A stretch of 38,390 bases of DNA. It comes from Haloplasma contractile. Lineage in GTDB: Bacteria > Bacillota_I > Bacilli_A > Haloplasmatales > Haloplasmataceae. Position numbers and translations under genes: made by a program. Positions 1 to 29,260 of this stretch are shown piece by piece. Position 1 is the stretch's first letter. Every line of letters starts with the position of its first letter. The stretch is taken from the NCBI GenBank assembly GCA_016841945.1, contig JAENYC010000032.1, forward strand, positions 1-38,390, in the 5' to 3' direction. The notes below the pieces were generated by a model, which saw only the letters and a list, made by a program, of their open reading frames with translations, had not been told where the DNA came from and did not search any database.

Positions 1-43
1 CTAATCCGCTCTAACATTTTTCTACAAAATTTACACAAACTAC

Positions 44-2846: not shown

Positions 2847-3800
2847 TTATTGATTTTGAAATTCTTCACACAATTTATCAGCGTCTTTTATTATACGGTC
2901 TACCATATCCCAATCATCACATAGTGTACCACTGGCCCAAATATGGCCTCCACCACCATATTTAGCCGCTAGTTTATTAACTATTGGGCCTCTTGAACGA
3001 AAACTTGTCCGAATTTTACCTAAATCTTTATCATCTGTGAAAAACATCCACATGATAATTTCTTTGATGTTCGCTAAGGTATTAACCATACCAGAAGCAT
3101 AGTCAGCCGTAATATTAAACTCATCTAAAATTTCCTGGGTGATTTTCATGTATCCCAATCCATTTTCAGTATAGTGAAAATGATTCATTAAAAATCCATT
3201 GAATTTCATTTCAGCAATTGATTTATAATACAGGTTGGCATATAGTGCTTGCTTATCAAAGCCAAATTGATACACCTCAGCACCATATCTAAGTGTTCTT
3301 TCTGTCACACTATTATAATAAAAACGACCTGTATCAGTTAAGAGACCTGCATATAACACCATGGCAGCTTCTTCTGTCATCACCAATTGTTTTTTGTTAT
3401 ACAAGTAAAGTTCAATAATCATCTCTGTTGCGGCAGCATAGGTGGTATCCACCCACTCTAATGAACAAAATTCCTCTGTCAGTGGATGATGATCGATTTT
3501 TATGATTTCCTTTCCATTCATAAAACGTTCATCATCAATTCTTCTTTTATCGCCAACATCTACGATAATGACGAGTGCATCTTGATATATATCATCACTA
3601 ATACTGTCCATTGGACCCATAAATTCTGTACGATTTGAATGAGCACCTACTGCGTATACAGATTTATCTTTAAATGATGCTTGAAGTATATATTTCAACC
3701 CTAATTGTGAACCAATACAATCTGGGTCAGGACTCACATGATGATGGATAATAATCGTTTCATATTCTAAAATCTTCTCAAATATTTCTTTTTGTATCAT
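2847..3800 (-). CDS. DHH/DHHA1 phosphoesterase, NrnA-like (copy 2)
   Basis: A 317-residue paralogue of the gene downstream, clearly similar along the whole length. HHHVSPDPDCIGSQ, IIVDVGD, KIDHHP and GGGGHIWASGT are all present, so it should be active. A strong RBS (TTGGAGG, then TTTT, ATG) precedes the start. The gap to copy 1 is 13 bases, so they form one transcript. Differences such as NPDCDC versus SPDPDC near the metal site and HNFASG versus HIWASG in the DHHA1 loop could mean different substrate lengths or sugar preference. With nuclease lipoproteins next door, a role in finishing degradation of short oligonucleotides is plausible but inferred. Confidence 0.88.
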   Translation of the reverse strand: MIQKEIFEKILEYETIIIHHHVSPDPDCIGSQLGLKYILQASFKDKSVYAVGAHSNRTEFMGPMDSISDDIYQDALVIIVDVGDKRRIDDERFMNGKEIIKIDHHPLTEEFCSLEWVDTTYAAATEMIIELYLYNKKQLVMTEEAAMVLYAGLLTDTGRFYYNSVTERTLRYGAEVYQFGFDKQALYANLYYKSIAEMKFNGFLMNHFHYTENGLGYMKITQEILDEFNITADYASGMVNTLANIKEIIMWMFFTDDKDLGKIRTSFRSRGPIVNKLAAKYGGGGHIWASGTLCDDWDMVDRIIKDADKLCEEFQNQ

Positions 3801-16983: not shown

Positions 16984-18291
16984 CTAATATATGATTCCAA
17001 ATTCTTTTGCGTCTTTACGCAATTGTTCTCTAAACTTAGGGTGAGCAATATTAATTAATCTTTCAACACGTTCTTTTATATTTGTCCCTCGAAGTGCAGC
17101 CACACCATATTCAGTCACAACATAATCTACATCATTTCTCGATAATGTCACATAAGCACCTTGTTTTAATTGAGGAACGATTTTTGAAATTTCTTCTCTT
17201 TCACCAGTTTTTTTATTTTTCACCATTGCTGTAGAATATAACGTAATGAACGAACGTCCATTTTTGGCATTTTGAGCACCAATTGCTGTATCTGCTTGCC
17301 CCCCTGTTCCACTAAATTGCACAGAACCAATAGATTCTGAACAACACTGACCCGTTAAATCAATTTCTATCGTTGTATTAATAGATACTTGATTATCATT
17401 TTGTCCAACTACATAAGGGTCATTTACATAATTTCCATCCAAAAATAAACAAGATGGATTATCATCAATAAAATCATATAATTCTTTTGTCCCTAAAGCA
17501 AATGTTGCAACCATTTTTCCTCTATGTAGTGTCTTTTTCTTTCCAGTCACAACACCAGCTTTTGCGAGTTTCATTAATCCGGTTGTCAACATTTCTGTGT
17601 GAACACCCAAATCTTTTTTGTCCATTAATGATGCTGCAACCGCATTTGGAATTCCACCAATACCTAATTGAATACAATCGCCATCATTAATAAATTGTGC
17701 GATATAAGAACCAATTTTTAAATCTTTTTCATTTGGTTCAGCATCAGGTAATTCAGGAATATCATAATCAACTTGAACAAAGTAATCTATATCATTAACA
17801 TGTACCTCTAAATCTCCTAATGTTCGAGGTAATTTAGGATTAATTTCTAAAATAACTATATCACTAGCTTCTAGCATTCTCTTCTCATAGGTATTACCTA
17901 GTGACAATGAAACAAAACCATGTTTATCAGGTGGAGTTGCATTTCCCATATAAATATTTGGTTTAACATGATGCAATCGCTTCACACCTGCTAAATGTAA
18001 ATGATTTGGAATATAGGATATATTTCCATTTTTATGTGCTTTTCGAATAGGTCCAGTATAAAACCACCCATCCATTGTAAAAGAATCTTTATATTGTGGA
18101 TCCATAAAATAATCAGCATTATTCATTGGCAAACAGGTTGTGACCCTCACATTTTTTACTGTATCAGCAATCGTGTGTAATTTTGATAAAATTTCACGTG
18201 CTTCAGAGCCACCTAATCCAGTTACTATAACATCATTTGATTTTATCTTTGAAAGTGCTTGTTCAACTGTTATAATTTTATCATTATACAT
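16984..18291 (-). CDS. Acyl-CoA:carboxylate CoA-transferase (acetyl-CoA hydrolase/transferase family)
   Basis: 435 residues, of the 4-hydroxybutyrate/butyryl-CoA:acetate CoA-transferase branch. GIGGIPNAVAASL is the nucleotide/CoA loop and DLGVHTEML holds the Glu (about 233) expected to carry the CoA thioester; VQFSGTGGQADTAIGA and YGVAALRG are also typical. It moves CoA between an acyl-CoA and a free acid such as acetate. The ATG at 18291 is chosen over an upstream start at 18318 because AAGGAG precedes it correctly and a hairpin occupies 18311-18351. With thiolase, reductase and acetate kinase nearby, acetate or a C4-C6 acid is a likely partner. Confidence 0.92.
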   Translation of the reverse strand: MYNDKIITVEQALSKIKSNDVIVTGLGGSEAREILSKLHTIADTVKNVRVTTCLPMNNADYFMDPQYKDSFTMDGWFYTGPIRKAHKNGNISYIPNHLHLAGVKRLHHVKPNIYMGNATPPDKHGFVSLSLGNTYEKRMLEASDIVILEINPKLPRTLGDLEVHVNDIDYFVQVDYDIPELPDAEPNEKDLKIGSYIAQFINDGDCIQLGIGGIPNAVAASLMDKKDLGVHTEMLTTGLMKLAKAGVVTGKKKTLHRGKMVATFALGTKELYDFIDDNPSCLFLDGNYVNDPYVVGQNDNQVSINTTIEIDLTGQCCSESIGSVQFSGTGGQADTAIGAQNAKNGRSFITLYSTAMVKNKKTGEREEISKIVPQLKQGAYVTLSRNDVDYVVTEYGVAALRGTNIKERVERLINIAHPKFREQLRKDAKEFGIIY

Positions 18292-18310
18292 ATCATCACT
18301 CCTTGTGATT

Positions 18311-18351
18311 ACTATCAATTTAGGGAAGGTAAACCTTCCCTATTTGATAGT
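18311..18351 (-). other. Strong two-part hairpin between livK-like and CoA-transferase genes
   Basis: Inner stem AGGGAAGGT/ACCTTCCCT (18322-18330, 18333-18341) and outer stem ACTATCAA/TTGATAGT (18311-18318, 18344-18351). No T tract follows on the minus strand, so it looks more like an mRNA-stabilising, processing or partial-attenuation element behind the abundant binding-protein message than a full terminator. Confidence 0.6.
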
Positions 18352-18358
18352 CTTAATT

Positions 18359-19606
18359 TTACTCTTCTGTTAAGATTTCGTCAATAGACTGAACTGGTTC
18401 AAAGACTGGTAATATTAATGGATCAGTATAATTTAATTTTAACAATGACATTTCTTGTGTACCAATACGTTGTCCATCAGCAAAATCAATTTGTCCACCA
18501 AATGGATTGTCAATAGGTGTCTCTTCCATTGCGTCAATATAACTATCCCAAGTAATCTCTTCACCTTCTAAACGTTTTAATCCTTCAATGAAGAAATGTC
18601 CTGCAATCCAACCAGCCATTGCATATGCATTCGCATTAAAGGAATCATCACCCATATAAGCTGTCATAGCAGTTGTAAATTCAGTTACAGCGTCAACATC
18701 TCCTAAGTCTACCCATGCATTTAGATAGACATCAAATTTGTAAGTATCTTCTGTTTCATTATAAATATCAGCTTTAATACTATTCATATAAGTAGCACTT
18801 GCACTAACATATGAAGAAATAACAGGTAGTGTAGAATTTTGTTTTGCTAGTTCTTTTGCCGCAACAACGAATGGTCCTTGATTAGAAGCAATGAGTACGA
18901 TTTCAGCATCAGATTCTAATATACGCATTATTTGAGAACTAACATCTGTATCTGTTGCACCAAATGATTGTCTTTCTACGATTTCAATGCCTTCTCCAGT
19001 CATATTATCGACTTGCTCTTCGATTCCATCGCGCATGCTATAACCAGCATCATCGTTTGTATAAATTACAGCTATTTTTGTTTTTGCTAAATCCTTAACA
19101 GCACGTGCTACCATGAATCTACCTTCCATTTGATAGATTGGTTGTACTGGGAATATTGCACGTTCGCTACCAGTTGCACTTGGATTATACAATGCACCAA
19201 TACCAGTTGCTAGATATACAGTTGGTATACCAGCATCTTCAATTAAATCTAAAGTAGCTGATACTGTAGGTGTTCCAAAATGACCAACAAGCGCAAAAAC
19301 TTCATTATCCTCTATCATCTTACGAGTACACGGTACGCCTTTTTCTGACGTGAAATCATCACTCTCATTAATTAATGAAATAGTACGTCCATCGACTCCA
19401 CCATTATCATTAATCATCTTGAAGTAAGCATTAATTCCTGCATTAAATGGCTCACCAACAAAAGCTAAATCTCCAGCAGTTGCAGCACAGTTTCCAACAA
19501 GAACACTGTCTTCTGTTATCCCTTGTGTACCAGTGTCTTCTTTTTTACAAGAAGATAATACAAATACTGCACATAAAATAACCAATACAGTTAGTATTTT
19601 TTTCAT
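18359..19606 (-). CDS. Branched-chain-amino-acid-type ABC importer binding lipoprotein (LivK-like)
   Basis: 415 residues. Lipobox FVLSSC (Cys20) is followed directly by the fold, without the Thr-rich linker of the other lipoproteins here. The Peripla_BP_6 fold is recognisable from VGNCAATAGDLAFVGEPFNAGINAYFKMIND, GRTISLINESDD, GHFGTPTVSATLD and YTNDDAGYSM. This family binds Leu/Ile/Val, amides, aromatic acids and other small carboxylates, so its ligand is open. The RBS is GGAGGAG. A weak AT hairpin (19639-19657) lies in the 59-base gap after livF and could help set its separate expression level. Confidence 0.92.
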   Translation of the reverse strand: MKKILTVLVILCAVFVLSSCKKEDTGTQGITEDSVLVGNCAATAGDLAFVGEPFNAGINAYFKMINDNGGVDGRTISLINESDDFTSEKGVPCTRKMIEDNEVFALVGHFGTPTVSATLDLIEDAGIPTVYLATGIGALYNPSATGSERAIFPVQPIYQMEGRFMVARAVKDLAKTKIAVIYTNDDAGYSMRDGIEEQVDNMTGEGIEIVERQSFGATDTDVSSQIMRILESDAEIVLIASNQGPFVVAAKELAKQNSTLPVISSYVSASATYMNSIKADIYNETEDTYKFDVYLNAWVDLGDVDAVTEFTTAMTAYMGDDSFNANAYAMAGWIAGHFFIEGLKRLEGEEITWDSYIDAMEETPIDNPFGGQIDFADGQRIGTQEMSLLKLNYTDPLILPVFEPVQSIDEILTEE

Positions 19607-19665
19607 TAAATCTCCTCCAATTTTTTATTATTTATCTATAATATCTTAAAGATATTATTCCTATA

Positions 19666-20373
19666 TTATTTCCCTAAGTAAGCTTCCACTATCTTAGGAT
19701 CCTTAATTAAATCACTTGCTAAGCCTTCTTTTTTAACCAATCCTACTTCTAATATGTAAACATAATCAGCAATTTTGAATGTTTGTAAAGCGTTTTGTTC
19801 TACAATTAAGACCGTTGTACCTTCTTTTTTTATCTCTTTTATAATATTAAAAATCTCTTTTACTAATAGGGGTGCTAATCCTAATGAGGGCTCATCCAAT
19901 AACAATATCTTAGGATTAGCCATTAATGCTCTTCCAATTGCAAGCATCTGTTGTTCTCCACCTGATAAAGTAGCCGCTATTTGTTTTTTCCTTTCCTTTA
20001 ATATAGGAAAGTAATGATAAACACGATCATAATTAATTTTATCTTTACTAACGGTAAACGCACCAATTTTTAAATTTTCTTCAACAGTAAAATCTAAGAA
20101 TATTTGACGCGCCTCAGGTGCCTGCACGATTCCTAATCTTGTGATTTTCTCAGGTGATAAACGAGTTATATCTTGGTTATAACAAAATACCTCTCCATCT
20201 TTAGCATCAATAAGACCTGATATTTTTTTCAATGTGGTCGTTTTTCCAGCACCATTTGCTCCAAGAAGTGCAACCACACTTCCCTCAGGAACAGAAAGAT
20301 TAATGCCTTTCAATGCTTGTATGTTGCCATAATTGACAATTAAATCTTTAACAGTTAAGGCGATTTTACTCAT
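19666..20373 (-). CDS. livF: LIV-type ABC importer ATPase (LivF-like)
   Basis: 235 residues, normal LivF length. Walker A GANGAGKTTT, Q-loop VQAPEARQIF, signature LSGGEQQMLAIGRAL, Walker B ILLLDEPSLGLAP and H-loop VEQNA. It pairs with LivG to drive the LivHM channel. It overlaps livG by eight bases, and AAGGAAG precedes its start. Confidence 0.93.
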   Translation of the reverse strand: MSKIALTVKDLIVNYGNIQALKGINLSVPEGSVVALLGANGAGKTTTLKKISGLIDAKDGEVFCYNQDITRLSPEKITRLGIVQAPEARQIFLDFTVEENLKIGAFTVSKDKINYDRVYHYFPILKERKKQIAATLSGGEQQMLAIGRALMANPKILLLDEPSLGLAPLLVKEIFNIIKEIKKEGTTVLIVEQNALQTFKIADYVYILEVGLVKKEGLASDLIKDPKIVEAYLGK

Positions 20374-21196
20374 TCATATCATCTTCCTTTCCTAAGTATG
20401 CTTCTTGTACAAGTGTGTTGTTCTGTATTTCTTTCGCCTTTCCAATTGCAAGTAATTTTCCAAAAGATATTGCACAAACTCTATCACAGGTACCCATTAC
20501 AAGACGCATATCATGTTCTACAAGGAAAATGGTACAATTTAATTTATCTCTTATATCTTTAATTAATTGGGATAAATTTTCTGTTTCCTGCTCGTTCAAT
20601 CCTGCTGCTGGTTCATCGAGTATAATTAGTTTTGGATCACTCATTAACGTTCTTGCAAGTTCTACTTTTTTTAAAACACCATATGGTAATCCCCCTACTA
20701 GAGCATCTTTATACTTTTCAATACCTACAAATTTTAATATATCGACAGCTTTTTTTCTAAACTTACGTTCTTCTTTGTTAGCTCTTGGTAAGCGTAGTAT
20801 TTGAGAAAAAATATCTGTCTTGTAATAGATATGACACCCAACTAATAAGTTATCAATTACTGATAGTTCATAAATCAATTCAACATTTTGAAAGGTTCTC
20901 ACAATTCCCTGTCTAATAACATTATGAACTTTTTGTCCTATCAAATTAACGACTTCATTATTTTTATTTTTCATGAGAATAGTGCCAGTATCTGGTGGAT
21001 AGAACTGTGTAATACAATTAAATACAGTTGTTTTACCTGCACCATTTGGTCCTATTAAGCCAAAGATTTCCTTTTCTTTTATATCAAAAGATAAATTATC
21101 AACTGCTTTTAATCCACCAAATGCAATCGATAAATCCTCAATTTCTAATACTGTATTTTCTTTCATTTGATATTGTTTATTTATTTTTTTACCCAT
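20366..21196 (-). CDS. livG: LIV-type ABC importer ATPase (LivG-like)
   Basis: 276 residues. Walker [13 protein letters not shown]-loop RTFQNVELI, Walker [17 protein letters not shown]-loop VEHDM. The signature region reads [15 protein letters not shown], where LivG proteins usually have LSYGQQRRLEIARAL, so the central Gln is replaced. The insert after the Q-loop ([18 protein letters not shown]) is typical of LivG. ATG 21196 is preferred over GTG 21205 because AGGTG lies just ahead. It overlaps livM slightly. Confidence 0.92.
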
Positions 21197-22208
21197 TACC
21201 AACACCTATTTTTCTCTGAAAAAATTTTCTAAATAATCTTTTTATATCATGAAAGATATTCACTAATCCACGTGGATAAAATAATATAATTACAATGATA
21301 AGTGCACCTCTTAAAATATAATCTATACCACTAATTGGAATATAATGTAAGAATAAAACATCTGCACAAACGATAAAAGCTCCAATTAATGTTCCAAATA
21401 TTGAACGCATACCGCCAATCACAATTATGGCCAATATGTTTAATGATGTGACCATCGTCCAAGTTTGATAATCCGTGTGGTTTAAATTATGGGCAAAAAG
21501 CACACCCGCTACACTTGCAAATAAAGTCGAAATTGCAAAAGCTTCTAATTTATATTTTAATAGATTTATTCCCATTGCTTGAGCACAAGTTTCACTGCCA
21601 CGCATAGTGAGGAAAGCGCGCCCTACTTTAGAGTGAATGATATTAAAAGTTAAAAACATCACTATCCCTAATATAATGATTAGTAGGATAAACATTGAAT
21701 TAAAGCTATTATACTCGTAGTGCTTTAATTTAATTAATCCAAATAATAATTGTGGTGTCTCTGCTTTTCGTCCTGTAGAACCACCAAAAAAATCGATATT
21801 TAGAAATAATTTATGTAATATTTCTCCAACACCTAATGTAGCAATCGCTAAATAATATCCCTCTAATCGTAGTGATACAAGTCCTACTAATAATCCTATT
21901 AACATCGGAATACCAACTGCGATTAATAATGACAAGAAAAATGGTAAATTTAAATCCTTAGTAAAATAAGCAGCAAAGTAAGAACTTAATCCCATAAATC
22001 CAGCAGTTCCTAAAGATACCAAGCCAGAATATCCTAATAAAATATTTAAACCTAATGCTGCTATCCCATAAATCACAACATTACTTAAAATATCAACAGT
22101 AGCATTTTGTATGATGTCATAATAAGCTAGCACTGGTAATAATGCCATTAATGCAATAAAAACTGCGTATGATAAATATGCTTTTTGAGCTATGGATAAT
22201 TTCTTCAT
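21189..22208 (-). CDS. livM: LIV-type ABC importer permease (LivM-like)
   Basis: 339 residues, highly hydrophobic with about eight to nine membrane segments. Family landmarks are YGIAALGLNILLGYSGLVSLGTAGFMGLSSY, GYYLAIATLGVGEIL, RGSETCAQAMGINLLKYKLEAFAIS and GGMRSIFGTLIGAF. It forms the channel with LivH. The RBS is GGAGGGATTGAT. The gap after livH is 13 bases. Confidence 0.94.
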   Translation of the reverse strand: MKKLSIAQKAYLSYAVFIALMALLPVLAYYDIIQNATVDILSNVVIYGIAALGLNILLGYSGLVSLGTAGFMGLSSYFAAYFTKDLNLPFFLSLLIAVGIPMLIGLLVGLVSLRLEGYYLAIATLGVGEILHKLFLNIDFFGGSTGRKAETPQLLFGLIKLKHYEYNSFNSMFILLIIILGIVMFLTFNIIHSKVGRAFLTMRGSETCAQAMGINLLKYKLEAFAISTLFASVAGVLFAHNLNHTDYQTWTMVTSLNILAIIVIGGMRSIFGTLIGAFIVCADVLFLHYIPISGIDYILRGALIIVIILFYPRGLVNIFHDIKRLFRKFFQRKIGVGNG

Positions 22209-22221
22209 ATCAATCCCTCCA

Positions 22222-23109
22222 TCATACTTTCTTCACTATTTTTTTACCGATTAAACCTTGAGGTCTAAAAACGATAAAAAGTAAAATTAAAACATACATT
22301 AAGGATTCTCCCCATACTGATGAAATATAATATGTAAATACATTTCTACTAAATGCGATAAGATACGCCCCAATGACTGGGCCATAAAAGGTTTGGAATC
22401 CTCCTAAAACACATGCAATTAATGCAATGACTTGTATTGAGTCCATCATATCAGGTTTAACATTAACACTAGGTGCAATCATAATTGCAGCAAGTGCGCC
22501 GAATGCTCCAGCAATTGCCCATGCACTCATGGTGACAATTTTAGTAGGAACACCCATTAGTCTTGCAGTTGGTTCGTTTGATGCTGTAGCACGAACGGCT
22601 AATCCCCATTTTGTTTTTTGAATAAAGAAAAACAAACATACCATGAAGATTAATCCTATTCCAACAGTAAATAAACCATTATATTCAATTGATGCATTCA
22701 TAATCGTTAAAGAATCAGATTGCCCAACATAATTTATAAACTTAGGTAAATGAAAAGGATTTATTCCAAAGAGCAATGGCGTAATACCTGAAATAATAAT
22801 AATAAGTCCTAAAGTAACAATTTGTTTTCCAATAATATCAACTTTATGAGCATGTCTTAATACAACCATATCTACAATTAATCCAATAACAATGGCGGAT
22901 ATTATTCCAACTACTGCCCCTAGCCATATTGATGAAAGAATGTGGTTCATAAAATAAACAGTAATAAAGGCTGTAAACATTCCAATTCTTCCAAATGCAA
23001 AGTTAACCGTGAAAGAGGTTCTAATAATAAGGATAATACCTAAAGCTGCTAAGGCATAGATACTTCCTTTTTCTAAACTATTAAATAGAATCTGTAAGAT
23101 TGTCTCCAT
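22222..23109 (-). CDS. livH: LIV-type ABC importer permease (LivH-like)
   Basis: 295 residues. LEKGSIYALAALGIILIIRTSFTVNFAFGRIGMF, RATASNEPTARLMGVPTKIVTMSAWAIAGAFGALAAIM and LGGFQTFYGPVIGAYL are standard LivH landmarks. The ATG at 23109 (METILQ) is chosen. The open frame reaches to 23166, but the GGGGG before 23109 gives the only sensible spacing. It overlaps the 3' end of the KAS III-like gene by 29 bases, which ties importer and condensing enzyme to one transcript. Confidence 0.93.
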   Translation of the reverse strand: METILQILFNSLEKGSIYALAALGIILIIRTSFTVNFAFGRIGMFTAFITVYFMNHILSSIWLGAVVGIISAIVIGLIVDMVVLRHAHKVDIIGKQIVTLGLIIIISGITPLLFGINPFHLPKFINYVGQSDSLTIMNASIEYNGLFTVGIGLIFMVCLFFFIQKTKWGLAVRATASNEPTARLMGVPTKIVTMSAWAIAGAFGALAAIMIAPSVNVKPDMMDSIQVIALIACVLGGFQTFYGPVIGAYLIAFSRNVFTYYISSVWGESLMYVLILLFIVFRPQGLIGKKIVKKV

Positions 23110-24124
23110 TGACATCCCCCCATCTAATGACATTTGCTGCCCACACATAACCAATTCCTGCAGCAATCATACATACAACTGTTTTATCCTTTACTTTACC
23201 TTGTTCTAATGCTAAATGTAATGATAAAATTTGATCGACTTGCCCCATGTGTCCATAATTTTCTAGATATATCGTTTGGTCTTCTGTTAATCCTAAATCT
23301 TTAATCATTGCATTGTGTTGAGAACGTTTAAAATGTAATACAGCTAGATAACCTATATCCTCTCTTGTAAGATTTGATTTTCTTAATGCTTCATCAATAC
23401 AAAAATACCAGTTTTTTAATGAAACTTCCTTTAATCTATCTTTCATATGAACAGGATTCATCACTCTAAGAGATTGATAAGCTTCATCAATATTGTCCTT
23501 TGTAATAGGCTTACAAATTCCCCCTATCTCAACACCAGCATCCCTTGATAATGAGCCATCCGCAATAATATGCGAACCTAACAATACATTTCTAGAATAA
23601 TTCTTCTTTAATATAATTGCGCCTGCGCCTGCTGATAAGTTATACATCATAGACATATATTTATCACTATAATCGACGAAATCACCATTTCGATAGCCAC
23701 CGACAACCATAACGGTTTCAATCTCATCATCGGAAATGATCATATCTTTTGCTATTTTCATTGCGGTAACGGTTGTACAACATCGATTTTGAACATCTAT
23801 CCCCCAAGCATTTACTGCACCAATTTTATCTTGTATATATAAAGCAGAAGTTGTGAGAGGATATTCCTTCCATTCTTCCCCCATACACAATATGACATCA
23901 ATTTCTTTTGGGTCTACCTTTGTATTTGTTAAACAATCTAGTGCTGCCTTGACTGCCATTTCTTGTGTCCCATCATCTTCTAAGGGAATCGGTTTTTCTA
24001 TTATTCCTAACTTCTCTTTAACAGCTGATGCTTCCCAAACACCATTAGTCTTTTTCGCAATTTCCTCTGCTGTCATCTTTTTATTAGGAATATAGATACC
24101 GGTTCCAACAATTCCTATATGCAT
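23081..24124 (-). CDS. KAS III-like condensing enzyme (thiolase superfamily) with His in place of the FabH Asn
   Basis: 347 residues with the thiolase fold. The nucleophile Cys115 is in VQNRCCTTVTA and the first catalytic His264 is in AVLHFKR. The position of the FabH Asn (GNTS) reads YGHMGQ, giving His292, so the apparent triad is Cys-His-His, as in KAS I/II, on a KAS III framework. The GVW-ASAVKEKLGI N-terminal region and AAGIGYVWAANVIRW C-terminus match the KAS III group. It is not a housekeeping fabH neighbourhood: no acpP, fabD or fabG-F cluster surrounds it. It may condense, cleave or transfer an acyl group from CoA. RBS is AGGAGG. Confidence 0.82.
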   Translation of the reverse strand: MHIGIVGTGIYIPNKKMTAEEIAKKTNGVWEASAVKEKLGIIEKPIPLEDDGTQEMAVKAALDCLTNTKVDPKEIDVILCMGEEWKEYPLTTSALYIQDKIGAVNAWGIDVQNRCCTTVTAMKIAKDMIISDDEIETVMVVGGYRNGDFVDYSDKYMSMMYNLSAGAGAIILKKNYSRNVLLGSHIIADGSLSRDAGVEIGGICKPITKDNIDEAYQSLRVMNPVHMKDRLKEVSLKNWYFCIDEALRKSNLTREDIGYLAVLHFKRSQHNAMIKDLGLTEDQTIYLENYGHMGQVDQILSLHLALEQGKVKDKTVVCMIAAGIGYVWAANVIRWGDVNGDNLTDSI

Positions 24125-24150: not shown

Positions 24151-25050
24151 TCATTTATTAATAAAATTCCTCATCACTTCGATAAATTTATCAAATTGAT
24201 CTGTTAATGGTGAATGACCACTATCTTTTAGTAAAACCATTTCAGCTATATCTCCTAGTTGTCTTTTTGTTTCTTGTGCAAAGATAACAGGTACGACTAA
24301 ATCATCTTCACCTTGAATAATTAAAACAGGTGCTTTTATTCCTTCTTTTCTATTACTACCTTGACAAACACCATTATATTCATCTGTCATATTAAAATGC
24401 GCAAGTGCATAATCAACATCTACTAAGTTTCTTTGTTTAACAATGGCATTTAAATATCTATCATAACGAGATGGTTCCGGTTGTTTCTTATTGTATATTA
24501 ATAAATTATAGGTATTTCTAAAAAACTCTTTATTTTGAGTTTCTAATGCATGAACAGCTGGTTTGACTTGAACAGGATCATTAGCGATATCTTCATAAGA
24601 ACTGAGTAATTTTGTCATAATCGGTTGACCATTATCATCCTTTTTAAATATTGGATATCCTTTAATACCAACTGATTCAATTAATACCACTTTTTTAATA
24701 CAATTTGGCATATCACAAGCAAGTTCTAAAGCGACGCCTCCACCTGTTGACCAGCCAGCAACAATGATGTCTTGTAAATTTAATTCTTTAATTAATAATT
24801 CAATATCTTCTGCAAAATCTCTTAAAGAACGAATTGGTTTATTATAACTACTATCTCCAAATCCTCGCATATCAACAGCGTATATTGTATACTCATTTTC
24901 AAGTGTCTCCATCACAGTATCATAGAAGACAGATGATGACATATTGCCATGAATAAGTAATAATGTCTGTCCTTGATGACCTGCTTTTCGATAAGCAATC
25001 TTTTCACCGTTTGTTAAAGAAATATATGAAACTGGAAACTCTTTTAACAT
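24151..25050 (-). CDS. Alpha/beta hydrolase (esterase/lipase-like)
   Basis: 299 residues. Oxyanion loop LLIHGNMSSS, nucleophile GWSTGGG (Ser), acid IQGEDDLVVP (Asp) and KDSGHSPLTD (His) make a complete triad. A cap region of about 70 residues lies between strands 6 and 7. It is 19 bases after the SDR and 26 before the KAS III-like gene. Possible activities are carboxylesterase, acyl-CoA thioesterase or hydroxyalkanoate-oligomer hydrolase; none can be picked from sequence. It ends in TGA, evidence for the standard code. Confidence 0.87.
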   Translation of the reverse strand: MLKEFPVSYISLTNGEKIAYRKAGHQGQTLLLIHGNMSSSVFYDTVMETLENEYTIYAVDMRGFGDSSYNKPIRSLRDFAEDIELLIKELNLQDIIVAGWSTGGGVALELACDMPNCIKKVVLIESVGIKGYPIFKKDDNGQPIMTKLLSSYEDIANDPVQVKPAVHALETQNKEFFRNTYNLLIYNKKQPEPSRYDRYLNAIVKQRNLVDVDYALAHFNMTDEYNGVCQGSNRKEGIKAPVLIIQGEDDLVVPVIFAQETKRQLGDIAEMVLLKDSGHSPLTDQFDKFIEVMRNFINK

Positions 25051-25069: not shown

Positions 25070-25789
25070 TTATAATCTCATACCACCATTTACATCTAAT
25101 ACATGCCCGGTAATATACGAAGCATCGTCTCCTGCTAAAAATAATGCTGCATTTGCAACTTCAACTGGTTCTCCAATACGACCAAGCATCGTTTGTTTAG
25201 CGAATTTATCCAATAAATCTTGTGGGACGGTTTTTAAGATATCCGTCATGATATATCCTGGAGCAATCGCATTCACTCTCACTTTTGCACCTTTACGAGC
25301 AAATTCTTTTGCCCAAGTTTTTGTTAGTCCTATGACACCAGCCTTTGTGGCAGAATAGTTAGCTTGCCCTATATTTCCGTATTCTCCTACAATTGATGAA
25401 ATATTAATAATGCTCCCTTGACCTTGCTCCATCATTTTAGGACCAACTAATCGCGTTAGATTGAAAACACCTTTTAAATTAACATCGATGACTAAATCCC
25501 ACATATCATCCGTCATTTTTCGTGTTAATGCATCTCTAGTAATACCAGCATTATTCACTAAAATATCAATTTTTCCATATTTTTCTATCACATCATTAAA
25601 TAATTGCTGACAATTATCTACATCTGTTACATTCAATTGGTAATAGAATACATTATCTTGTTCATAGGTTAAATCATTCATATCCGCTGCGATGACTGTG
25701 GCACCTTCTAATGCAAATAACTTAGCCATTTCTGCCCCAAGTCCTCTTGCCCCACCAGTAATAATCGCTATTTTTCCTTTTAACTTCAT
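25070..25789 (-). CDS. Short-chain dehydrogenase/reductase, FabG/PhaB type
   Basis: 239 residues, classical SDR. Cofactor motif TGGARGLG, NNAGIT, catalytic Ser in NISSIVGEYGN, YSATKAG (Tyr and Lys), and C-terminal YITGHVLDVNGGM. The Asp at the end of beta-2 (AADMND) is usually taken to favour NAD(H) over NADP(H). Placement straight after an acetoacetyl-CoA-type thiolase suggests a 3-oxoacyl-CoA/3-hydroxyacyl-CoA (or 3-hydroxybutyrate) dehydrogenase. The ATG at 25789 is preferred over GTG 25798 (AGAGGTG spacing). Confidence 0.88.
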   Translation of the reverse strand: MKLKGKIAIITGGARGLGAEMAKLFALEGATVIAADMNDLTYEQDNVFYYQLNVTDVDNCQQLFNDVIEKYGKIDILVNNAGITRDALTRKMTDDMWDLVIDVNLKGVFNLTRLVGPKMMEQGQGSIINISSIVGEYGNIGQANYSATKAGVIGLTKTWAKEFARKGAKVRVNAIAPGYIMTDILKTVPQDLLDKFAKQTMLGRIGEPVEVANAALFLAGDDASYITGHVLDVNGGMRL

Positions 25790-25808
25790 ACTACACACCT
25801 CTTCCTAT

Positions 25809-27017
25809 TTATAAAATATTTTTTAAAACAACAGCAGTACCCATTCCTCCACCAATACAAAGTGAAGCTAACCCGTGTATCGCTTCCCGTTTTTTCATTT
25901 CATAAAGCAAAGTCACGATAATACGACTACCACTTGCACCCACAGGGTGTCCTAAAGCAATAGCACCACCATTGACATTGGTTCTTTCCTTAATCCAGTC
26001 TTCTGTTACACCATACGCTTCACTTAATTCATGAATAACACCTAAACTCTGCGCTGCAAATGCTTCATTTAATTCCATCAATTCCATATCTTTTAAATCC
26101 ATTTGTGCATAATTTAGTGCATTTTTAATTGCTGGTGTTGGACCTAATCCCATCACGCTTGGGTCAACAGCTCCTTGACCAATACCAATCAACTCAGCCA
26201 AAGGTGTCAATTGATATTTTTCAATTGCTTCTTCACTCGCAACCAATATCATCGATGCACCATCATTAATACCTGATGCATTTCCTGCCGTCACTGAACC
26301 CTCTTTTTTAAAGACCGGTCTTAATTTCGCCAATTTTTCTAAATTTGTCTTTCTGTTTGGATATTCATCTTGCTCAAATATAAGGGTTTCTTTACGTTTT
26401 TTTACTTCAATCGGAACGATTTCATCTTTAAATCTGCCACAATCTACTGCATGAATCGCTTTTTGCTGTGAAAGATATGCAAATTCATCTTGTGCCTCAC
26501 GCGTAATATGGTATTTATCAACGATATTTTCCGCGGTAACTCCCATGTGATAACCATTAAATATATCAGTTAGTGCATCATAAATCATATGATCTTTAAT
26601 CTTCATTTCCCCCATCTTGTAACCACTTCGAGTCGCCTCGGGTATTAAGTAAGGCGCTTGACTCATCGATTCAACACCACCAGCAAACACTAGATGATGT
26701 AGTCCTAATTGAATATTTGCATAAGCATTCATGAGTGCTTTCATACCACTTCCACAGACCATGTTAACAGAATAAGCTGGTACTTCATGTGGTAAACCAC
26801 CATAAATGGCTACTTGTCTTCCAACTCCTTGACCTAAACCCGCAGGTAATATATTTCCAACAATCACCTCATCAATAGATGCATTATTCACTTCTGTTTC
26901 CTCTAAAATATTTTTAATTAAAGTCGCCCCTAATTGTGCAGGATGAACATCTTTAAGAGACCCTAAAAAACTACCAATCGCTGTACGTTTTGCAGCAACA
27001 ATAAACACTTTTTTCAT
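25809..27017 (-). CDS. Acetyl-CoA C-acetyltransferase (thiolase II type), operon copy
   Basis: 402 residues. Catalytic Cys88 in NMVCGSGMKA, His357 in LGHPVGASGSR, Cys387 in LCIGGGMG; NEAFAAQ is also present. It condenses two acetyl-CoA or cleaves acetoacetyl-CoA or a longer 3-oxoacyl-CoA. From the start codon (27017) to base 25912 I read the DNA as identical to the second copy; only the last ~100 bases differ, giving six substitutions (Y372H, E378K, A379S, I380L, V397I, L402I relative to copy 2). It is first gene of the long operon, with a GGGAGG RBS and an unusually long leader of about 165 bases. Confidence 0.95.
   Translation of the reverse strand: MKKVFIVAAKRTAIGSFLGSLKDVHPAQLGATLIKNILEETEVNNASIDEVIVGNILPAGLGQGVGRQVAIYGGLPHEVPAYSVNMVCGSGMKALMNAYANIQLGLHHLVFAGGVESMSQAPYLIPEATRSGYKMGEMKIKDHMIYDALTDIFNGYHMGVTAENIVDKYHITREAQDEFAYLSQQKAIHAVDCGRFKDEIVPIEVKKRKETLIFEQDEYPNRKTNLEKLAKLRPVFKKEGSVTAGNASGINDGASMILVASEEAIEKYQLTPLAELIGIGQGAVDPSVMGLGPTPAIKNALNYAQMDLKDMELMELNEAFAAQSLGVIHELSEAYGVTEDWIKERTNVNGGAIALGHPVGASGSRIIVTLLYEMKKREAIHGLASLCIGGGMGTAVVLKNIL
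25912..27017 (-). repeat. 1.1-kb direct repeat, copy A (thiolase)
   Basis: Pairs base for base with 28090-29195 (offset 2178) as far as I can compare by eye. The identity ends exactly at the start codon on one side and about 100 bases before the stop on the other. The outer ends and promoters are clearly diverged. Confidence 0.9.
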
Positions 27018-27048: not shown

Positions 27049-27064
27049 ATAAAAGCGCTTTTAT
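27049..27064. promoter_or_regulatory. GCGC-centred palindrome in the thiolase 1 leader (cre-like)
   Basis: ATAAAAGCGCTTTTAT, a perfect 16-base palindrome about 120 bases downstream of the predicted transcription start. It resembles low-GC Gram-positive CcpA (cre) sites, with two mismatches to the usual TGWNANCGNTNWCA. A similar GCGC site lies at the thiolase 2 promoter. Confidence 0.45.
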
Positions 27065-27121: not shown

Positions 27122-27150
27122 TTGATTTAACATAAAAGTTCATATATACT
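27122..27150 (+). promoter_or_regulatory. Plus-strand promoter facing the thiolase promoter (toward tetR)
   Basis: TTGATT (27122-27127), 17-base spacer, TATACT (27145-27150). It faces the thiolase 1 promoter head-on, and its -10 lies in the mirror arm of the same palindrome. It would give the TetR gene a second, longer transcript under the same operator. Confidence 0.5.
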
Positions 27151-27196
27151 AAACATGAAGGGTGTCTCACATGAAGGACCTTTCATGTTTAGTATA
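27145..27196. promoter_or_regulatory. Palindromic operator region at the thiolase 1 start
   Basis: Outer arms TATACTAAACATGAA (27145-27159) and its exact complement (27182-27196) contain the -10 of each facing promoter. Inside, ACATGAAGGACCTTTCATGT (27169-27188) is a near-perfect inverted repeat starting two bases after the thiolase -10. A weaker copy (27153-27172) starts two bases after the plus-strand -10. The TetR-family gene next door is the obvious candidate repressor; binding is inferred. Confidence 0.7.
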
Positions 27197-27219
27197 ATTT
27201 ACCAATTTTTGTTTGTCAA
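27191..27219 (-). promoter_or_regulatory. Promoter of the thiolase/LIV importer operon
   Basis: On the minus strand: TTGACA (27219-27214), 17-base spacer, TATACT (27196-27191). The palindromic operator begins two bases downstream, so a bound repressor would block the start site. Confidence 0.82.
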
Positions 27220-27271: not shown

Positions 27272-27300
27272 TTGATAAAATTATTGAAATATGGTAAAAT
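27272..27300 (+). promoter_or_regulatory. Proximal promoter of the TetR-family gene
   Basis: TTGATA (27272-27277), 17-base spacer, TAAAAT (27295-27300), start about 30 bases before the ATG. No palindrome overlaps it. Confidence 0.6.
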
Positions 27301-27338: not shown

Positions 27339-27935
27339 ATGAACTTATTAGTTAAAGAACCAAAAACAAAAAGAGGATTAAATACATTAAATAGGATTTG
27401 TGATAGTGCAAAACAATTATTCTATGAAAAAGGCTATCATAATACTTCTATCAACGACATTACAGATGGCGCTAATATTGCTCCGGGAACCTTTTATATC
27501 TATTTTAATGATAAGTATAATTTGTATAAATATTTATTGCTTCAATATAGCCACGACATACGTAAATCTATAAGATTAGCTACGGAAAACTGTGAATCTC
27601 GTTATGAAAGGGAAAGAATAGGGCTAAAAACATTTTTAAAGTATATTCATAAACATAAAAATGCATATCATATCATTTGGGAATCTTTATATATTGACTA
27701 TGAACTATTTAGAGCATATTATGTTGATTTTGGACAACGTTATTCTAATGGAATCATCGCTGGACAAAAAGAAAATGAAGTAAGAAACGTAGACCCAACT
27801 GTCCTATCTTTTATGCTTATGGGTATATCTAACTTTATTGGTCTAAACTATGCAATATTTGCTGATGGAAAAGATTTTGATGATGTAGTAGATAAAGTGA
27901 TGGATATTTTAAAAAATGGCATGTTTAAAAAATAA
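27339..27935 (+). CDS. TetR/AcrR-family transcriptional regulator
   Basis: 198 residues. The N-terminal DNA-binding domain (about 15-62) has the family pattern: RICDSAKQLFYEKGYHNTSINDITDGANIAPGTFYIYFNDKYNLYKYLL. The rest is a helical ligand domain with a C-terminal hydrophobic helix (FMLMGISNFIGLNYAIF). It lies between two thiolase genes, divergent from the first and convergent with the second. By position it should repress the thiolase operons and respond to an acyl-CoA or free acid; this is inference. AAGGATG precedes the ATG. Confidence 0.9.
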   Translation: MNLLVKEPKTKRGLNTLNRICDSAKQLFYEKGYHNTSINDITDGANIAPGTFYIYFNDKYNLYKYLLLQYSHDIRKSIRLATENCESRYERERIGLKTFLKYIHKHKNAYHIIWESLYIDYELFRAYYVDFGQRYSNGIIAGQKENEVRNVDPTVLSFMLMGISNFIGLNYAIFADGKDFDDVVDKVMDILKNGMFKK

Positions 27936-27986: not shown

Positions 27987-29195
27987 TTAAATTATATTTT
28001 TTAATATTACCGCGGTTCCCATTCCTCCACCTATACATAGTGAAGCTAGACCATGTAATGATTTACGCTTTTTCATTTCATGAAGCAAGGTCACGATAAT
28101 ACGACTACCACTTGCACCCACAGGGTGTCCTAAAGCAATAGCACCACCATTGACATTGGTTCTTTCCTTAATCCAGTCTTCTGTTACACCATACGCTTCA
28201 CTTAATTCATGAATAACACCTAAACTCTGCGCTGCAAATGCTTCATTTAATTCCATCAATTCCATATCTTTTAAATCCATTTGTGCATAATTTAGTGCAT
28301 TTTTAATTGCTGGTGTTGGACCTAATCCCATCACGCTTGGGTCAACAGCTCCTTGACCAATACCAATCAACTCAGCCAAAGGTGTCAATTGATATTTTTC
28401 AATTGCTTCTTCACTCGCAACCAATATCATCGATGCACCATCATTAATACCTGATGCATTTCCTGCCGTCACTGAACCCTCTTTTTTAAAGACCGGTCTT
28501 AATTTCGCCAATTTTTCTAAATTTGTCTTTCTGTTTGGATATTCATCTTGCTCAAATATAAGGGTTTCTTTACGTTTTTTTACTTCAATCGGAACGATTT
28601 CATCTTTAAATCTGCCACAATCTACTGCATGAATCGCTTTTTGCTGTGAAAGATATGCAAATTCATCTTGTGCCTCACGCGTAATATGGTATTTATCAAC
28701 GATATTTTCCGCGGTAACTCCCATGTGATAACCATTAAATATATCAGTTAGTGCATCATAAATCATATGATCTTTAATCTTCATTTCCCCCATCTTGTAA
28801 CCACTTCGAGTCGCCTCGGGTATTAAGTAAGGCGCTTGACTCATCGATTCAACACCACCAGCAAACACTAGATGATGTAGTCCTAATTGAATATTTGCAT
28901 AAGCATTCATGAGTGCTTTCATACCACTTCCACAGACCATGTTAACAGAATAAGCTGGTACTTCATGTGGTAAACCACCATAAATGGCTACTTGTCTTCC
29001 AACTCCTTGACCTAAACCCGCAGGTAATATATTTCCAACAATCACCTCATCAATAGATGCATTATTCACTTCTGTTTCCTCTAAAATATTTTTAATTAAA
29101 GTCGCCCCTAATTGTGCAGGATGAACATCTTTAAGAGACCCTAAAAAACTACCAATCGCTGTACGTTTTGCAGCAACAATAAACACTTTTTTCAT
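27987..29195 (-). CDS. Acetyl-CoA C-acetyltransferase (thiolase II type), monocistronic copy
   Basis: 402 residues with the same catalytic Cys88, His357 and Cys387 as the operon copy. The first 371 residues are identical between the two, and six substitutions fall in the last 31. Unlike copy 1 it has a short leader, its own TTGACA/TATACT promoter and a terminator, so it is transcribed alone. TAGGAGG precedes the start. Two identical enzymes under different control suggest a dosage or condition-specific need for thiolase independent of the importer operon. Confidence 0.95.
   Translation of the reverse strand: MKKVFIVAAKRTAIGSFLGSLKDVHPAQLGATLIKNILEETEVNNASIDEVIVGNILPAGLGQGVGRQVAIYGGLPHEVPAYSVNMVCGSGMKALMNAYANIQLGLHHLVFAGGVESMSQAPYLIPEATRSGYKMGEMKIKDHMIYDALTDIFNGYHMGVTAENIVDKYHITREAQDEFAYLSQQKAIHAVDCGRFKDEIVPIEVKKRKETLIFEQDEYPNRKTNLEKLAKLRPVFKKEGSVTAGNASGINDGASMILVASEEAIEKYQLTPLAELIGIGQGAVDPSVMGLGPTPAIKNALNYAQMDLKDMELMELNEAFAAQSLGVIHELSEAYGVTEDWIKERTNVNGGAIALGHPVGASGSRIIVTLLHEMKKRKSLHGLASLCIGGGMGTAVILKNII
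28090..29195 (-). repeat. 1.1-kb direct repeat, copy B (thiolase)
   Basis: Same-orientation partner of 25912-27017. Recombination between them would delete 2178 bases including the TetR gene. Confidence 0.9.
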
Positions 29196-29209: not shown

Positions 29210-29229
29210 AAATGAATGCGCTTTCACAT
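29210..29229. promoter_or_regulatory. Operator at the thiolase 2 start (TetR- or CcpA-type)
   Basis: On the minus strand ATGTGAAAGCGCATTCATTT starts two bases after the -10, the same offset as the thiolase 1 operator. It shares TGAAAG--C-TTCAT with that site. It also matches the cre consensus TGWNANCGNTNWCA with one mismatch. Either the TetR protein or CcpA could bind; sequence alone does not decide. Confidence 0.6.
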
Positions 29230-29231
29230 CT

Positions 29232-29260
29232 AGTATAGTTTACCTCATATTATTTGTCAA
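29232..29260 (-). promoter_or_regulatory. Promoter of thiolase 2
   Basis: On the minus strand: TTGACA (29260-29255), 17-base spacer, TATACT (29237-29232). Hexamers and spacing are identical to the thiolase 1 promoter although spacer sequences differ. Confidence 0.82.

What the first reader, a model, noticed from the sequence alone, without database searches (positions are those of the whole stretch)
27122..27219. Face-to-face promoters sharing one palindrome between thiolase and tetR
TTGATT-17-TATACT (plus) and TTGACA-17-TATACT (minus) point at each other; both -10 elements are in the 15-base arms of one inverted repeat, each followed by AA-ACATGAA. Their starts would be only ~25 bases apart, so the repressor, and polymerase collision, could couple operon expression to tetR autoregulation. 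tetR also has a separate proximal promoter at 27272-27300.
Basis: partly seen in the sequence, partly recalled or inferred. Interest (0 to 1): 0.55.

Follow-up and report, generated by a model that had tools for sequence, protein, structure and literature searches.

The report
Face-to-face promoters sharing repressor sites
Two promoters that point at each other, with a pair of repressor-binding sites between them, most likely switch a storage-polymer/acyl-CoA operon and its own repressor gene together; the layout is real and conserved in many related bacteria, but the principle is already known from other systems.

Summary
The two promoters and the inverted repeat are at the stated coordinates, and the repeat exceeds all 200 shuffles. 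The long palindrome, however, is not the conserved unit. In 59 loci with a thiolase divergent from an orthologous tetR, the conserved units are 14-bp sites TGAA-N6-TTCA: 113 perfect sites against 1.0 expected, at least one in 59 of 59. The window has two: O1 27156-27169 (one mismatch) and O2 27172-27185, centres 16 bp apart, each 5 bp past one -10 element. A plus promoter (TTG, 16-18 nt spacer, TATAAT/TATACT) upstream of the minus -10 occurs in 30 of 30 loci of families f1, f12 and f3. With a spacer of exactly 17, it occurs in 27 of 31 tandem-operator loci against 0.13 expected, and in 1 of 28 others. Most other families keep separate promoters. Best reading: TetR dimers on O1/O2 block both start points and an acyl-CoA releases them; polymerases also exclude each other. 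Nothing here shows transcription. Closest known design: scbA-scbR of Streptomyces. New member of a known kind. The proximal tetR promoter is not established.

The parts
27122..27150 (+). Plus promoter, TTGATT-17-TATACT, toward tetR (face-to-face partner 1); predicted start about 27157
   Evidence: TTG-17-TATAMT conserved at this place in 27 of 31 tandem-operator loci, TTG-16..18-TATAMT in 30 of 30 f1/f12/f3 loci
27191..27219 (-). Minus promoter, TTGACA-17-TATACT, toward the thiolase operon (face-to-face partner 2); predicted start about 27184
   Evidence: 11/12; a TTGAC.-17/18 promoter is found in 59 of 60 loci (none scored in L012)
27156..27169 (.). Operator O1, TGAAGGGTGTCTCA (7 of 8 consensus positions), starts 5 bp after the plus -10
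27172..27185 (.). Operator O2, TGAAGGACCTTTCA (8 of 8), ends 5 bp before the minus -10; 16 bp from O1 centre to centre
27145..27196 (.).
   Evidence: mostly not conserved as a repeat
27050..27063 (.). cre-like site TAAAAGCGCTTTTA (12 of 14) in the thiolase leader, possible CcpA site
   Evidence: 46 of 60 loci have a site of 12 or more against 0.96 in mononucleotide shuffles; cre consensus recalled
27272..27300 (+). Possible proximal tetR promoter TTGATA-17-TAAAAT, not established
   Evidence: 59 of 500 shuffles as good
27339..27935 (+). tetR: TetR-family repressor, FadRSa-like acyl-CoA sensor (inferred)
   Evidence: PF00440 2.5e-13; best solved relative 6el2 2.7e-36; residues
25809..27017 (-). 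Thiolase (acetyl-CoA C-acyltransferase), first gene of the operon
   Evidence: TIGR01930 467.5 bits, cutoff 240.55
25070..25798 (-). SDR, FabG/acetoacetyl-CoA-reductase-like
   Evidence: NF009466 above cutoff
24151..25050 (-). Intracellular short-chain-length PHA depolymerase
   Evidence: NF050089 386.4 bits, cutoff 300
23081..24124 (-). 3-oxoacyl-ACP-synthase-like protein PRK06840
   Evidence: NF005308 479.7 bits, cutoff 315
18359..23166 (-). Five genes read as a branched-chain amino acid-type ABC transporter: two permeases, two ATPases, binding protein
   Evidence: binding protein PF13458; permeases and ATPases named from the sequences, not scanned
16984..18318 (-). Acetyl-CoA hydrolase/CoA-transferase family
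   Evidence: PF13336 7e-61; closest NCBIfam butyryl-CoA:acetate CoA-transferase below cutoff

Best explanation
A bidirectional autoregulatory control region. The thiolase/PHA-depolymerase operon (minus) and tetR (plus) are transcribed from two promoters that face each other, so their first ~27 nt overlap. Two TetR operators (TGAA-N6-TTCA, centres 16 bp apart) fill the overlap, each straddling one start point. Without ligand, TetR dimers occupy both and stop both promoters (autorepression plus operon repression). A short acyl-CoA made or consumed by the pathway releases TetR and both promoters open. Because the polymerase footprints would overlap, only one promoter at a time can hold an open complex; the stronger minus promoter should win, keeping tetR low while the operon is induced. 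Shown here: sequence anatomy, conservation, gene content, conserved DNA-contact and some CoA-contact residues. Inferred: that TetR binds these sites, the ligand, the start points, and mutual exclusion.
For: Both promoters present. 113 perfect operators in 59 loci against 1.0 in shuffles, at least one in 59 of 59; pair spacings only 16, 19, 33 or 38. Plus promoter TTG-17-TATAMT in 27 of 31 tandem loci, 0.13 expected, 0 on the opposite strand of the same stretch, 1 of 28 in the other group. Of these 31, nine were among the loci from which I read the pattern; the 22 others give 18 hits. Spacer sequences differ while the 17-nt length is kept. In f12 tetR begins 12-71 nt past the minus -35, mostly too near for another whole promoter. 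tetR's best solved relative is FadRSa, an acyl-CoA-released repressor binding semi-palindromic sites between its own gene and a divergent esterase gene (PMC6449355, abstract and passages). Its essential Gly48 is Gly50 here (80 of 80 orthologues); CoA-contact Arg86 is Arg88 (80 of 80), Arg73 is Arg75 (71 of 80).
Against: No transcript or binding data exist here. The window's plus promoter is weak by consensus (9/12; -35 TTGATT 4/6). A second plus -10 (TATAAT, perfect) overlaps the minus -10; a plus promoter-like match of that kind scores 9 or more in 15 of 30 loci. The FadRSa CoA contacts Lys77 and Arg132 are not conserved across orthologues (position 79 mostly A/S, position 134 R in 33 of 80). 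O1 of the window has one mismatch. Upstream of 22 tetR relatives without a nearby divergent thiolase, 9 lack a perfect site within the upstream stretch searched, at most 450 bp.
Confidence: 0.78

Rival explanations
1. Only the minus promoter is real in this position; the plus TATACT is a by-product of operator symmetry and tetR is made from the proximal promoter 27272-27300.
For: Proximal 10/12 promoter exists in the window, and best plus matches of 10/12 occur in the same stretch of three relatives; the plus face-to-face promoter scores only 9/12.
Against: The plus TTG-17-TATAMT is kept in f12 loci where the long palindrome is absent, and no proximal promoter of 9 or more lies past the minus -35 in 23 of 25 f12 loci. 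The proximal match is chance-level in each f1 locus (59, 42, 49, 148 of 500 shuffles).
Confidence: 0.12
2. Back-to-back bidirectional promoter: tetR is started from a plus -10 (27192-27197 TATAAT) that overlaps the minus -10, with operators in its -35/spacer region.
For: Plus promoter-like match overlapping the minus -10 scores 9 or more in 15 of 30 and 8 or more in 26 of 30 f1/f12/f3 loci.
Against: Much of the match is forced by the operators (TTCA) and by symmetry of TATAAT; hexamers and spacers vary (16-18) and 4 of 30 have none, whereas the distal plus promoter is in 30 of 30.
Confidence: 0.07
3. The inverted repeat acts as RNA (hairpin, terminator or attenuator) in one of the leaders.
For: 19-nt arms 95% complementary.
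Against: Predicted start points cut the repeat; predicted leaders do not fold clearly better than shuffles (z -1.10 plus, +0.95 minus). No terminator found. The repeat is mostly not conserved.
Confidence: 0.03

Closest known systems
scbA-scbR of Streptomyces coelicolor (PMC3134472; passages read)
   Same: Divergent genes, repressor gene and target transcribed from face-to-face promoters whose transcripts overlap (53 bp there, about 27 bp here); repressor sites OA and OR at the two promoters; small-molecule release; interference modelled as sitting-duck collision. ScbR being TetR-family is recalled; the ScbR NCBIfam model hits the window protein weakly, below cutoff.
   Different: Target there makes a signalling butyrolactone; here a PHA/acyl-CoA operon. 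Here two or three operators sit at fixed 16- or 19-bp spacing inside the overlap; the scb operators were described only as adjacent to the promoters in what I read.
E. coli bioA/bioBFCD operator with BirA
   Same: Two operons and one 40-bp operator (PMC4382993, passages); face-to-face overlapping promoters are recalled, not seen in a call.
   Different: BirA is a biotin ligase with a winged helix, not encoded there (recalled); biotin is a co-repressor, here a ligand is expected to release.
FadRSa of Sulfolobus acidocaldarius (PMC6449355; abstract and passages)
   Same: Closest solved relative; repressor of esterase/beta-oxidation genes, sites in the divergent intergenic region, acyl-CoA release, one or two dimers per site.
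   Different: Archaeal TBP/TFB promoters; 16-bp motif; 56 of 173 identical.
EcoRV restriction-modification control region (PMC5333194; passages)
   Same: Divergent genes with overlapping polymerase sites.
   Different: C protein control; no TetR.

Membership tests
TetR-family repressor | TetR_N helix-turn-helix domain | tested here: met
   PF00440 50 bits, cutoff 24
FadRSa-type acyl-CoA sensor | Conserved DNA-contact Gly48 and CoA-contact basic residues | tested here: inconclusive
   Gly50 80/80, Arg88 80/80, Arg75 71/80 conserved; positions 79 and 134 not
FadRSa-type acyl-CoA sensor | Acyl-CoA releases it from DNA | not testable with these tools
   needs binding assay
Bacillus-type FadR (NF053878) | Score above the equivalog cutoff | tested here: not met
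   36.2 bits, cutoff 200
ScbR autoregulator-binding factor (NF041196) | Score above the equivalog cutoff | tested here: not met
   37.9 bits, cutoff 150
Overlapping face-to-face promoter pair | Two sigma-70-type promoters pointing at each other within one polymerase footprint | tested here: met
   by sequence only
Overlapping face-to-face promoter pair | Overlapping 5' ends of both transcripts | not testable with these tools
   needs 5'-end mapping

The most novel reading that the evidence does not exclude
The face-to-face pair is a selected switch: operators are added or lost as whole units at 16- or 19-bp steps between two opposed promoters (one in L006, two in the window, two or three in f12), so that repressor occupancy and promoter exclusion together set a sharp or bistable response; related families have taken the alternative of separate promoters.
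Probability: 0.25. Interest if true: 0.55.

Novelty: new member of a known kind. Interest (0 to 1): 0.38.

Why it matters
It gives a natural comparative series of one regulator with its target in two promoter layouts (face-to-face, and separate), which would let the effect of promoter opposition on autoregulation be tested directly. It also predicts an acyl-CoA-responsive regulator and its operator for a poorly studied group that includes Haloplasmataceae.

Tried and rejected
RNA hairpin or terminator: no terminator, leader folds not clearly better than shuffles. One palindrome as the binding unit: mostly not conserved. A wider regulon by ATGAA-N6-TTCAT in the own genome: 24 sites against 11 in the reversed control. 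I read 15 of these 24 in context: one is the window's own site and 10 lie inside open frames; the 4 other intergenic or between-frame sites showed no acyl-CoA gene in the reading-frame starts printed, which I judged by eye without a family search. The 9 others were not read. Naming the tetR by NCBIfam: no equivalog above cutoff. Literature: searches showed no description of this locus in their listings; (Haloplasma contractile with polyhydroxybutyrate) gave 0 papers; one search listed 3 papers, seen as a listing only.

Counts and dropped rows: of 76 tetR matches, 3 were not fetched. One search used 82 loci with 120 bits or more, 60 of them with a thiolase within 900 bp. L048 (same intergenic sequence as L005) was left out of the counts, but is one of the 60. 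L001, L002 and L047 are the window itself and were left out. One search used 80 rows (L048 and one row under 150 aa dropped); its face-to-face labels were assigned by me and checked afterwards. In call 35C, 27 of the 30 face-to-face loci were scored; L012, L062 and L084 were not, and 5 rows of other families (L093, L101, L103, L112, L115) were also printed. L010 and L080 were scored there from a plus TATAAT nearer the operators than the promoter listed for them.

Full report
What is there. The plus promoter TTGATT-17-TATACT (27122-27150) and the minus promoter TTGACA-17-TATACT (27219-27191) are present as described, as is the inverted repeat 27145-27163/27178-27196. No dinucleotide shuffle of the intergenic region reached its score (0 of 200). 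Promoter matches alone mean little in this AT-rich stretch (7 found, 5.6 expected), so I turned to relatives.

Relatives. Orthologues of the window's tetR were taken from 60 relatives, 395 genomes of the class and a species collection, and 40 more stretches were fetched. The window lies in family f1; L048, named Haloplasmataceae, has the same intergenic sequence as the f1 member L005, so f1 is most likely Haloplasmataceae. Of 82 tetR loci examined, 60 have a thiolase divergent to it within 900 bp; L048 repeats L005, leaving 59.

The conserved element. Reading 14 intergenic regions, one of them empty, suggested a 14-bp dyad TGAA-N6-TTCA. In 59 loci there are 113 perfect copies against a mean of 1.0 (max 4 of 50 shuffle sets), and 59 of 59 have at least one. 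Pairs of perfect copies lie 19 bp apart in 25 loci, 16 bp apart in 4, 38 in 7 and 33 in 1. In the window O1 (27156-27169, one mismatch) and O2 (27172-27185) are 16 bp apart, and each is separated by 5 bp from one -10. Elsewhere the same parts are kept while the long repeat mostly is not: 18 and 16 of 19 complementary in the window and its nearest relative, 6-14 of 19 in the other 25 face-to-face loci scored (call 35C; L012, L062 and L084 not scored).

Two layouts. In families f1, f12 and f3, a plus promoter TTG-16..18-TATA(A/C)T lies upstream of the operators and faces the minus promoter in 30 of 30 loci (for L012 no minus promoter was scored, so its facing partner is only a -35-like TTGACA). 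With the stricter 17-nt spacer it is in 27 of 31 tandem-operator loci, against 0.13 expected and 0 on the opposite strand; in the 28 other loci it occurs once, in L006, an f1 member with a single operator. Nine of the 31 had been seen before I formed the pattern; the remaining 22 give 18 hits, and the 4 misses are two f12 loci with 16- or 18-nt spacing and two f22 loci. Loci of f9, f14, f16 and f22 have instead an operator near the minus promoter, commonly 12 bp before its -10, and in most of them another operator or plus promoter-like matches close to tetR. On the tetR tree the face-to-face label needs 2 changes, shuffled mean 24.3; the root is a drawing choice, so which layout came first is open. 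In f12 tetR starts 12-71 nt past the minus -35, mostly leaving no room for another complete promoter.

Gene content. The operon begins with thiolase, an SDR of FabG/acetoacetyl-CoA reductase type, an intracellular short-chain PHA depolymerase (NF050089, 386 over cutoff 300), a PRK06840 synthase-like protein, five genes read as a branched-chain-type ABC transporter and a CoA-transferase-family protein. This suggests use of 3-hydroxybutyrate or a related acyl-CoA (inference). That all belong to one transcript is inferred from spacing and strand.

The repressor. The best solved relative is FadRSa, PDB 6el2, E 2.7e-36, 56 of 173 identical. Per the passages read in PMC6449355, FadRSa represses esterase and beta-oxidation genes, binds semi-palindromic sites between its gene and a divergent esterase gene, and is released by acyl-CoA. 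Its essential Gly48 corresponds to Gly50 (80 of 80 orthologues), Tyr51 and Tyr53 to Tyr53 and Tyr55 (80 and 79 of 80), Arg86 to Arg88 (80 of 80) and Arg73 to Arg75 (71 of 80), while positions 79 and 134 vary. An acyl-CoA ligand is therefore likely, not shown. The protein does not meet the NCBIfam cutoffs for Bacillus FadR or ScbR.

Mechanism. With starts 7 nt past each -10 (assumed), the two transcripts overlap by about 27 nt and both starts fall in an operator. TetR bound at O1/O2 would block both promoters. Once it is released, footprints of about -50 to +20 (recalled) would overlap, so the promoters should exclude each other, with the stronger minus promoter dominating. The rivals (proximal promoter only; back-to-back promoter sharing the -10; RNA hairpin) are weighed above; bear on them.

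A second layer. A cre-like site (12 of 14 or more) is in 46 of 60 loci against 0.96 in mononucleotide shuffles: in the thiolase leader in f1 and several f9 loci, and overlapping or next to the minus -35 in most f12 loci. CcpA control is a recalled inference.

Comparison. scbA-scbR (PMC3134472, passages) has the same plan: divergent repressor and target, face-to-face promoters, 53-bp overlap, one operator by each promoter, ligand release. The finding is therefore a new member of a known kind. What is unusual is the depth of conservation, the fixed 16/19-bp operator steps, and sister groups with the alternative layout.

Noticed in passing
25809-27017 and 27987-29195: Two thiolase genes in the same orientation flank tetR; 1192 of 1213 bases identical with all differences at the two ends, suggesting gene conversion, recent duplication or an assembly effect. 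Recombination between them would delete tetR and the operators.
   Followed up: partly
29213-29260: The second thiolase has its own TTGACA-17-TATACT promoter (29260-29232) and a cre-like site 29213-29226 (13 of 14); I saw no TGAA-N6-TTCA pair in the upstream sequence.
   Followed up: partly
L118, G001: The same-genus relative has a second thiolase (76% identical to the window's) about 10 kb from its tetR-linked copy, not beside tetR.
   Followed up: partly
L006: A family member with a single operator between face-to-face promoters; the alignment looks like loss of one whole operator unit.
   Followed up: partly
27050-27063 and relatives: Conserved cre-like sites change place: thiolase leader in f1 and f9, overlapping or next to the minus -35 in most f12 loci.
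   Followed up: partly
1961-2833 and 2928-3800: Another direct duplication in the window, 72% identical over 0.9 kb.
   Followed up: no
1861-1892: Perfect 32-base palindrome.
   Followed up: no
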